A DNA stretch of 64,000 nt, taken from NCBI RefSeq assembly GCF_011745365.1, contig NW_024468918.1, positions 1,020,488-1,084,487 on the forward strand, written 5' to 3'. Under the pieces are notes generated by a model. It searched no databases and was not told the origin of the DNA. It saw only the letters and a list, made by a program, of their open reading frames with translations. The DNA comes from Cryphonectria parasitica EP155. Its lineage: Eukaryota > Ascomycota > Sordariomycetes > Diaporthales > Cryphonectriaceae. The position numbers were made by a program, and so were the translations under genes. Shown one piece after another: positions 52,214 through 54,902 of the stretch (positions within the stretch are counted from its first letter, which is position 1; each line of letters opens with the position of its first letter).

Positions 52214-52461
52214 ATGGCACAGCAAGATCATGGCCAAATGCGGCCACCAGAAGAAACCCCCAATGGTCCTCTCCATTCATCAGGATCGACCTTTACTGTG
52301 CTTGTCTTCAGCAAGACCCAGGGCTATCGTCATTCCTCCATCTCGGCAGGAGTTCTAGCATTGGAGGAACTCGCCAAGGCCTCAGAGAGCTCGCTCATCC
52401 CCTTCCACATACATGCTACCGAAGACGCCATCGTCTTTAACCCGTCGACATTGGCATTATA

Positions 52462-52516
52462 AGTCAAAGGGGGGGGTTTTGGGCCGGGGTAGTTTTGGGC
52501 CACCCTGGCCACCCTC
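52462..52516 (+). repeat. Left terminal inverted repeat of the transposon
   Basis: It starts AGTCAAAGGGGGGGGTTTTG and ends GGCCACCCTC. It is identical to the reverse complement of 54263-54317 over 55 bases. Within it GGGCC recurs near GGGGTAG, which may be transposase-binding sequence; that is an inference. Confidence 0.95.
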
Positions 52517-52559
52517 GTCAAATACACACACCCATATATATATATACTGTTTATCTATT

Positions 52560-54167
52560 CTATTCACCCACCACGATGCAATCCTCCTCATCAGTAGGTA
52601 ATTCGACATCGCTCTCTTCATTCAGACTATCCTCGTGGCGATTGGCCGCGTTTTGAGCTCTCTGTATATCCTCAATCCCTGCAAACTTCGAATTCGGATC
52701 CATATCAACCTTTCTTCTTTTACTAGGCCTCAGAGCCTCAATCTGCCTTTTCAACGCTTTATTTTCCTCCAATGCCTTGGCAAACTCGAGATCTCTCTCC
52801 CCATAAGCCTTTTTTATCTTCTTGAATAGCATACGGCGGCCTGGTTCCGTTCGAAGTTGTTGTCGATTCTCTAGCAGCTGATAGTACAGCTGTTTAGCCT
52901 TTCGAGGAGTTGAAAAGAGGACTGGCTGGCTTGAGAAGGCTTTTGGGGAAAGACGAGGTGCTGTTGATTGTGCTGAGCCTGAATTGGACTGGGTCTGACG
53001 GCTTGGTTGACTGTTCTCGAGGAGAAGAGGGCTCAAGAGGGCTTTTGAGGGTCTGAGAGGCCACAGACCAGTTGCTTTCCATCCAGATCTAATATTCTGG
53101 CTTGAAAGGCCTTCCAGTCGAGCCAGACGATAGTTGCTGAGGAATAAACGCTTGCCTGCAATAGTTGAATCGCCCCATTGGCCCATATTGCTGACTTTCT
53201 TTCTGTATGCCCGTTTGAGAGATGAAAAGACCCCTAGATCGAGGGGTTGAAGAACGTGAGAGGTATGAGGAGGCAAGTAAATAAGCAGGATATTGTTTTG
53301 GAAGCAAAGCCACATAAACTCGTCCGTTTTATGGCTGCCATAGCCATCCAGGACTAACAGCCTGGCTTCTGAGAGATCTGCTGGCTGGCTATGAGGAATG
53401 AAGATCTCTTTCAGCCATTCAACTGCCATTTTATCGTTTGTCCATCCGTTTTGCATAGCTGTGAACTTCCAACCATCAAAAGGCTCCAAATCAAGAGGAA
53501 ACCACTGTTGTTATACCGTTTGGCCCTTGAAAATCACCAGAGGGAAGAGGTAGGCACCTGTAGCTGAGATATACTCGAGGAAAGAAGTCCAGGCTTTTGA
53601 TCCAGGGTCTTTCCTTTGAATTGAACGCGAAGAGGAGCCTCCGAGGACTAATCCATTTGTTCCTTGGCCCTCCATCAGGCTAGCTTCATCCATATTCCAT
53701 CTATTAGCTGGCTTAATAGCTTGGATATGAGGAAGATTGAAAAGACGAAACCAAAGCTGTATTACCTCTGTTGTAGCCCCATTCGTTCGTTCAGAAGCAA
53801 TGCAGCGAATCTTCCTGACCTTTATCTCTGGATTTCTCTTCAAAAAAGCCTGAGTCCATTGCACCCCGAGGGCCTGAGGGTCTCCCTGGACCTCGAGGAT
53901 CTGCTGAGCAAAGTATTTGAGTTCTGAATGGCTTGGTGGAACGCCTAGGCTTTCTTGAATCAGGATCCATTCGGCCAGTCTTCTTTCCTGATCAATAGAG
54001 AGCCTTTGCTGGTTTTCGTGGGCTGTTTTATGCGATTCCCCTTCTTCTAGACGAGCCTGAAGAGTACTCCTTGGAATACCCCATTCCCTCGAGGCTTGCT
54101 GCTGAGACTTGCCTTTTCTGACAGCCTCAACGGCCTGGGCTAGCTCAAACTCGGAATAGGGCTTCAT
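52560..54167 (-). pseudogene. DDE_1 transposase with a single in-frame stop
   Basis: One frame of 536 codons runs from the ATG at 54167 to the stop at 52560, broken only by a TAA at 53513-53511 (codon 219). The N-terminus (MKPYSEFELAQAVEAVRKGK) is a psq-type helix-turn-helix, followed by a CENP-B/Tc5-like DNA-binding region up to about residue 125. The catalytic acids are Asp160 (RWNMDEAS), Asp274 (LVLDGYGSHKTDEF) and Asp310 (PPHTSHVLQPLDLGVF), so D2 and D3 are 35 residues apart. The C-terminus is lysine- and glutamate-rich. The TAA precedes CAACAGTGG; relatives usually have a run of glutamines there, so a CAA-to-TAA change is likely. The two halves are otherwise clean, and a full-length protein is not expected. 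Confidence 0.92.
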
Positions 54168-54262
54168 AACAGTCAGATAAAGGTTTGCTGGAAAGATGAA
54201 GTTGTTTGGATCAAAATTGGTTGAGTAATAGCTATCAAACTAAAGGGGGTTGAAGAGGCGGT

Positions 54263-54317
54263 GAGGGTGGCCAGGGTGGCCCAAAACTACCCCGGCCCAA
54301 AACCCCCCCCTTTGACT
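54263..54317 (-). repeat. Right terminal inverted repeat of the transposon
   Basis: Exact inverted copy of 52462-52516. Beyond its outer end lies the TA target duplication and then CCGCGTCATCG of the ThuA-like gene. Confidence 0.95.
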
Positions 54318-54902
54318 TACCGCGTCATCGTGTTTCTCCAGTCGTCAGGAGAGTTCCTCGACAACGAAGCGCAGCTGAGTGCTCTGGAAGGGTTTGTCCA
54401 AGGCGGAGGTGGGGTCGTTGGTATTCATTGCGCGTCGACTGGCCTTCCCTCCTCCACGTTCTATGGCAGCCTGATCGGGGCTGTCTTCACAGACCACCCT
54501 GACCCACAGAAGGGAACGGTGGTCGTTGAGGCGCCCAGTCACCCCATTCTCTCAGGGACCGCTGTGCCCGAATCGACAGTGAAGAGGGCTGTGGCAGTGT
54601 CGACTCCAGGGAATCTCACAGCAAAGGACAATGTCGCCACCCAATTTGAATGGTTTGACGAATGGTACAACTTCAAAGCCAACCCGAGAGCCGCTGGGGC
54701 GCATGTCTTGTTGACTGTCAAGGAGGCAACCTATAAGGGTGGCACAATGGGAGAAGATCACCCTGTGGCCTGGTGTCAGGATCGGCAAGATTCGCGGTCC
54801 TTCTACACTGCTCTGGGACACTTTGATGATGCATACAGAGACCCGCGGTTCATGAGAATAATAAGGAATGCTATTATGTGGACGGCCAGGGTCTCCATCT
54901 AA

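What the first reader, a model, noticed from the sequence alone, without database searches (positions are those of the whole stretch)
52214..54902. Intact ThuA-like gene split by a complete pogo/Fot1-type transposon
A 1856-base element with perfect 55-base inverted repeats lies at a TA duplicated on both sides. Deleting the element and one TA restores an uninterrupted 276-codon frame across LALYRVIVF. Perfect repeats and no other lesions in the host gene point to a very recent insertion, so this locus may be polymorphic between strains and could mark an active transposon.
Basis: seen in the sequence. Interest (0 to 1): 0.75.

Follow-up and report, generated by a model that had tools for sequence, protein, structure and literature searches.

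The report
Transposon splits a fungal ThuA gene
In the sequenced strain of the chestnut blight fungus a common kind of jumping gene has landed inside an ordinary enzyme-like gene and cut it in two; the jumping gene has itself been disabled by the fungus's repeat-mutating defence, whose signature here is less usual than the insertion.

Summary
A 1856-bp element (52462-54317) with 55-bp perfect TIRs and a TA on each side interrupts an otherwise open 276-codon ThuA-family gene; 13 aligned homologues run straight across the junction. The genome is Cryphonectria parasitica EP155. The element is a Pot2/Fot1-type pogo transposon with at least 25 near full-length copies (>=90% identity).

Two inferences need correcting. 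First, this copy is not a working transposon: its transposase has a stop at codon 219 of 535. Of 19 same-length copies, two have an open frame. Second, perfect TIRs are not a clock: 18 of the 19 have them, including two with 143-145 C-to-T changes. Variation among the 19 is 290 of 291 sites C/T or G/A, i.e. RIP. One transversion and no indel in 35 kb do support a young burst. Strain polymorphism could not be tested.

Unexpected: RIP here avoids a 5' G and a 3' T (HCV context), hits CpG like CpA and CpC only somewhat less, and spares element ends; context and end-sparing recur in an unrelated hAT family. Standard RIP indices miss it (0 of 26 copies pass both thresholds). The public gene model bridges the transposon and contains TIR-encoded residues.

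The parts
52214..52461 (+). 5' part of the ThuA-family gene: codons 1-82 and the first two bases of codon 83 (the left TA)
52460..52461 (.). left TA (target site duplication)
52462..54317 (-). 1856-bp Pot2/Fot1-type pogo transposon; its transposase gene lies antisense to the host gene
52462..52516 (+). left terminal inverted repeat, 55 bp, with two 16-bp direct repeats (52470-52485, 52486-52501, 88% alike)
54263..54317 (-). right terminal inverted repeat, 55 bp, with the matching 16-bp direct repeats (54278-54293, 54294-54309)
53511..54167 (-). [quoted passage not shown]
52560..53510 (-). rest of the transposase frame, with most of the DDE_1 domain, behind the stop
54318..54319 (.). right TA (target site duplication)
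54320..54902 (+). 3' part of the ThuA-family gene, to the stop codon
52444..54274 (+). 1831-nt 'intron' implied by the public EP155 protein (P0001), which skips most of the transposon and translates the end of the right TIR; probably an annotation artefact

Best explanation
A Pot2/Fot1-type pogo transposon of Cryphonectria parasitica EP155 inserted by cut-and-paste into a TA in codon 83 of an intronless ThuA-family gene and duplicated the TA. The gene, the only ThuA-family match found in this genome, was thereby broken: the frame now stops after 82 codons, at a TAA formed by the TA and the first base of the element. The insertion belongs to a young burst that left at least 19 copies of exactly the same length. 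RIP mutated the copies by C-to-T changes and gave this one a stop at codon 219 of the transposase, while its ends stayed untouched. The copy should be unable to move by itself, but its intact TIRs could still be used by transposase from the two copies with open frames. Shown: structure, copies, TA sites, mutation spectrum, stops, open frames. Inferred: the order of events, loss of gene function, mobilisation in trans.
For: Structure. Transposase domains HTH_psq, HTH_Tnp_Tc5, DDE_1. DDD triad D160/D274/D310 in the open copy L002, invariant with eight relatives. 25 places at >=90% identity; 26 of 28 fetched copies have TA on both sides. Stop at codon 219 here, at an HCV site (ACA context); 2 of 19 same-length copies open over 535 codons. 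290 of 291 variable sites over 19 copies are C/T or A/G, one A/T, no gaps; the T/A state is the minority at 284 of 290 sites. The methyltransferase genes CpDmt1 (rid orthologue) and CpDmt2 (dim-2 orthologue) are present with open frames (coordinates agree with passages of PMC5801561). The six-frame search matches ThuA at this locus only. Homologues cross the junction.
Against: No empty site from another strain was seen, so the insertion is inferred from homologues at 52-73% identity, not from an allele. No expression data. Whether the stop arose before or after the jump is open: this copy shares at most 6 of its 19 changes with any of the 15 lightly mutated copies (L003), and 11 with the heavily mutated L019, which fits RIP in place but does not exclude a mutated donor; five sites are changed in 12-15 of the 19 copies and look inherited, so some sources already carried changes. 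The public protein P0001 treats the element as an intron, so a spliced product is not formally excluded.
Confidence: 0.93

Rival explanations
1. The element works as an intron: transcripts splice from 52444 to 54274 and a slightly altered ThuA protein with 14 TIR-encoded residues is still made, as the public gene model says.
For: P0001 is reproduced exactly by joining 52238-52443 to 54275-54902.
Against: The implied intron is 1831 nt with the donor GTCGAC, poor against the usual short fungal introns and GTRNGT donors (recalled). None of 13 aligned homologues has the added residues; all 13 have residues where P0001 drops STLAL, 11 of them with the pair TL.
Confidence: 0.05
2. The insertion is old and fixed in the species; perfect TIRs persist because RIP spares ends, and the open host frame has survived by chance.
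For: Perfect TIRs are not a clock here; strain polymorphism is untested.
Against: One transversion and no gap in 35,264 bp over 19 copies and no frameshift or stop in 831 bp of host gene point to a young burst.
Confidence: 0.15
3. The C-to-T changes are not RIP but ordinary deamination of methylated cytosines over time.
For: CpG sites are hit as often as CpA per site; C. parasitica methylates cytosine in all contexts (passages of PMC5801561).
Against: Up to 145 changes per 1856 bp with one transversion over all 19 copies, and the same spared ends in two unrelated families. PMC5801561 reports methylation mainly at CHH and CHG and little at CG, which does not fit CpG as a top target.
Confidence: 0.12

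Closest known systems
Pot2 (Magnaporthe/Pyricularia) and Fot1-type pogo transposons of ascomycetes
   Same: TA target; TIRs of this length class with internal direct repeats (15-17 bp in DAHLIAE1, PMC3441728 section 9; 17 bp in TremA, PMC2836289 passages; 16 bp here); one intronless ORF; HTH_psq + HTH_Tnp_Tc5 + DDE_1 with a DDD triad. A Pyricularia grisea transposase (UniRef Q01165) is 50% identical over 100% of the query; that this entry belongs to the Pot2/Pot3 group is recalled.
   Different: Ends start AGTCAAAG, not ACGT as in DAHLIAE1. Transposases named for V. dahliae, Colletotrichum and P. grisea are about 50-53% identical; the top hit, an unnamed metagenome protein, is 57% (7995 candidates scored, 120 listed). 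So it is a family of its own.
Crypt1, the hAT transposon of C. parasitica (seen as citations in PMC3441728 and PMC5801561 passages)
   Same: Same species; the hAT family found here has near-identical copies and the same RIP signature. That this hAT family is Crypt1 was not tested.
   Different: Another superfamily, about 3.6 kb here, without the TA target (target rule recalled)
Repeat-induced point mutation (RIP) of Neurospora and other ascomycetes
   Same: C-to-T changes in repeats on both strands; RID orthologue present
   Different: No CpA preference over CpG; 3' T and 5' G avoided; element ends spared
ThuA family (PF06283), class I glutamine amidotransferase-like
   Same: Domain match of the joined frame far above the cut-off
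   Different: Disrupted here; function of the fungal members not known to me

Membership tests
pogo/Fot1 (Pot2-like) transposon | TA target site duplication | tested here: met
   26 of 28 fetched copies, the window copy included; L026 and L028 were only partly aligned
pogo/Fot1 (Pot2-like) transposon | terminal inverted repeats with internal direct repeats | tested here: met
   55 bp, two 16-bp repeats at 88%
pogo/Fot1 (Pot2-like) transposon | HTH_psq / HTH_Tnp_Tc5 plus DDE_1 domains | tested here: met
   Searches (two pieces of the window copy; L002), above Pfam cut-offs
pogo/Fot1 (Pot2-like) transposon | DDD catalytic triad | tested here: met
   D160, D274, D310 (35 residues between the last two) in L002; invariant in the alignment of nine, numbered one lower there because that frame lacks the first Met
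pogo/Fot1 (Pot2-like) transposon | uninterrupted transposase (autonomous copy) | tested here: not met
   window copy stops at codon 219; met in L002 and L007, 2 of 19 copies
pogo/Fot1 (Pot2-like) transposon | transposition activity | not testable with these tools
   no experiment possible
ThuA family | PF06283 match of the joined frame | tested here: met
   E=1.1e-57, 196.2 bits against a cut-off of 33.4
ThuA family | enzymatic activity | not testable with these tools
   no experiment possible
RIP | C:G to T:A transitions almost only | tested here: met
   290 of 291 sites in 19 pogo copies, T/A in the minority at 284 of 290; 225 of 225 sites in 9 hAT copies
RIP | RID-type methyltransferase gene in the genome | tested here: met
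   open frames at C2:1971383-1972249 and C6:348577-349791, within the coordinates given for CpDmt1 (rid) and CpDmt2 (dim-2) in PMC5801561 (passages)
RIP | preference for CpA (most fungi) | tested here: not met
   CpA 4.4%, CpG 4.3%, CpC 2.9%, CpT 0.6% of cells in 17 copies
RIP | occurs before meiosis in crosses | not testable with these tools
   no crosses possible

The most novel reading that the evidence does not exclude
RIP in C. parasitica has its own target rule, H-C-V (no G before, no T after the cytosine), and hardly reaches the outer 60-150 bp of a repeat. Transposons therefore lose their transposase but keep flawless ends, so that RIPped copies stay as substrates for any copy that is still open; and the usual CpA-based RIP indices overlook it, which may be why only limited RIP has been reported for this species.
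Probability: 0.6. Interest if true: 0.5.

Novelty: new member of a known kind. Interest (0 to 1): 0.38.

Why it matters
The insertion itself is an ordinary event, but it indicates that the reference strain of a model tree pathogen lacks an intact copy of its only detected ThuA-family gene and that the public gene model hides this. The copies give a clean natural record of RIP: because ordinary substitutions are nearly absent, C-to-T changes can be read almost directly. The record argues against using TIR identity as an age measure in RIP-capable fungi, and gives a target rule that could be tied to the RID-type enzyme by comparing species.

Tried and rejected
Perfect TIRs as evidence of recency: rejected. 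Sequence divergence between copies as age: rejected for the 19 same-length copies, since L019 and L020 (142 and 146 mismatches to the window copy) add no transversion. That mutated copies never gave rise to others: not supported. Lightly mutated copies share many changes with heavier ones (L007 8 of 10 with L014), and sites 342, 439, 855, 1431 and 1674 are changed in 12-15 of 19 copies; descent and repeated hits cannot be told apart well. Second ThuA gene as a back-up: none found by six-frame search (intron-split genes could be missed). Allele from another strain: none among the 120 hits listed of 2335. Solved-structure relatives of the transposase: none at E<=0.01.

Literature: Crouch et al. 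2020, the genome paper, is not held, and Clutterbuck 2011, which PMC8545091 cites for RIP in C. parasitica, was seen only as a citation; the target context may be in either. Papers were read as passages found inside the text, and one section of PMC3441728. Paper searches on RIP and its context. In the passages read I saw no ascomycete with CpC nearly as targeted as CpA and CpT avoided; RIPCAL's paper notes CpC depletion in Stagonospora nodorum repeats but with CpA-to-TpA dominant (PMC2621366). The library is partial.

Against the end-sparing claim: in the older subfamily (L018, L022, L024, L025) transition sites reach position 18 from one end and 24 bases from the other, though 48 of its 217 variable sites are transversions, so ordinary divergence is mixed in. 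L017 has one change inside a TIR. The limits 150 and 60 bp of the edge test were set after seeing the distribution; the TIR-only test (1 of 50 sites) was not.

Rows dropped: of 28 fetched pogo copies the spectrum used 17 or 19 of exactly 1856 bp; L018 and L021-L025 (indels, older) and L026-L028 (partial or below 90%) were left out, four of them being used as the older subfamily. Open frames were checked in the 19 only. The indices cover 26 of 28 (not L026, L028). Of 16 further places at 71-83%, 13 were not fetched and one (C1:40992) was fetched inside L023 but not analysed. Of 13 hAT hits, 10 were fetched and 9 used (L058 has gaps; L052 is cut by the contig end). Searches used the L002 transposase without its first Met (534 aa). 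An earlier count gave the stop as 53508-53510; the right place is 53511-53513.

Full report
What is there. The window lies in contig C10 of a 43.8-Mb, 17-contig genome. The EP155 protein P0001 comes from a contig of 1,293,730 bases, the length of C10, and two DNA methyltransferase genes lie within the coordinates printed for C. parasitica in PMC5801561. The genome is therefore taken as Cryphonectria parasitica EP155.

At 52462-54317 lies a 1856-bp element. Its 55-bp ends are perfect inverted repeats and a TA stands on each side. Removing the element and one TA leaves 831 bp, 276 codons and a stop, with no other lesion. The product matches ThuA, PF06283. Thirteen relatives at 52-73% identity, picked from the 120 listed, align straight across the junction. 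A six-frame search found no second ThuA gene.

What the element is. The antisense frame encodes HTH_psq, HTH_Tnp_Tc5 and DDE_1 domains. The open copy L002 encodes 535 residues with a D160/D274/D310 triad that is invariant with eight relatives. Among named relatives are transposases of Verticillium dahliae (53%) and Pyricularia grisea (50%); the top hit, unnamed, is 57%. With 16-bp direct repeats inside the TIRs it is a Pot2/Fot1-type pogo element.

Copies. The genome search returned 25 places at 90% identity or more, 16 more at 71-83%, and one copy in two pieces at 85-89%; it scored 40 of 75 candidates, so these are lower bounds. Of 28 fetched places 26 have TA on both sides. Nineteen are exactly 1856 bp.

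This copy is broken. Its transposase has a TAA at codon 219 (53511-53513), between the first and second catalytic aspartates. Of the 19 same-length copies 17 have at least one premature stop; L002 and L007 have none.

How it was broken. Over the 19 copies 291 sites vary: 151 C/T, 139 A/G and one A/T. There is no gap among them. The T or A state is the minority at 284 of 290 sites, so the direction is mostly C to T. Of 3,741 pairs of informative sites among 17 copies, 2,312 fail the four-gamete test, as expected if the same sites were hit repeatedly. This copy has 19 changes, 15 of them at HCV sites, the stop among them. This is RIP, and the rid orthologue is present.

Why the TIRs are perfect. 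In the 19 copies the two TIRs match each other fully in 18 and with one mismatch in L017. Among cytosines in the favoured context, 1 of 50 sites in the TIRs varies, and 1 of 73 in the outer 150 and 60 bp, against 229 of 397 inside (the 150/60 limits were set after seeing the data). L019 and L020, with 145 and 143 changes, have flawless TIRs. TIR identity therefore says little about age. What does speak for youth is one transversion and no gap in 35,264 bp. With a recalled fungal rate of 1e-9 to 1e-8 per site and year this is of the order of ten thousand to a few hundred thousand years at most; the figure is rough.

The RIP context. Per cytosine in 17 copies, CpA 171/3893, CpG 87/2006, CpC 135/4624 and CpT 30/4896 are mutated; after a G, 21/3774 in all and 0/1241 for GCT. 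CpC is hit somewhat less than CpA: 0.6 to nearly 1.0 of the CpA rate over the data sets. Summed as HCV against the rest: 612/8930 against 99/8303 in 19 copies. Counted once per site inside the element: 229/397 against 60/399. An unrelated hAT family gives 270/7641 against 25/8693, all 225 variable sites being transitions, with none in the first 145 and last 110 bp of the aligned part. The older pogo subfamily gives 319/1884 against 60/1744. For comparison, PMC4352252 found CpA, CpT and CpG signatures in its genomes (passages), and Anisogramma anomala, of the same order (recalled), shows CpA and CpT dominant (PMC10998396, passages). That paper speaks of limited evidence for RIP in a 43.9-Mb genome, by size and citation C. 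parasitica. The usual indices fail here: the substrate index is 1.47-1.72 in 26 of 26 copies (threshold at most 1.03) and the product index reaches 0.89 in 7 of 26.

The gene model. P0001, the public EP155 protein, is exactly 52238-52443 joined to 54275-54902. It skips an 1831-nt stretch and includes VAQNYPGPKPPPLT, encoded by the right TIR, which none of 13 homologues has. It is most likely an artefact.

Verdict. An ordinary insertion of a known kind of transposon, correctly seen; the burst looks young, this copy is disabled, and polymorphism remains to be tested. The RIP target rule and the bare ends are the part worth following.

Noticed in passing
P0001 (EP155 gene model over 52238-54902): The public protein contains 14 residues encoded by a transposon TIR; the annotation bridges the element as an 1831-nt intron.
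   Followed up: yes
L049-L057 (hAT copies): A hAT family of about 3.6 kb with near-identical copies shows the same C-to-T context and spared ends as the pogo family.
   Followed up: yes
G000:C6:1238364-1242081 and C1:38981-42731: Pogo matches of different identity lie side by side in twos and threes.
   Followed up: no
L018, L021-L025: An older pogo subfamily whose ends read AGTCGAAGG in 5 of 6 copies, with 13-19 transversions against the young one.
   Followed up: partly
P0123: A transposase 55% identical to this fungal one is filed under a Massilia metagenome-assembled genome, probably contamination.
   Followed up: no
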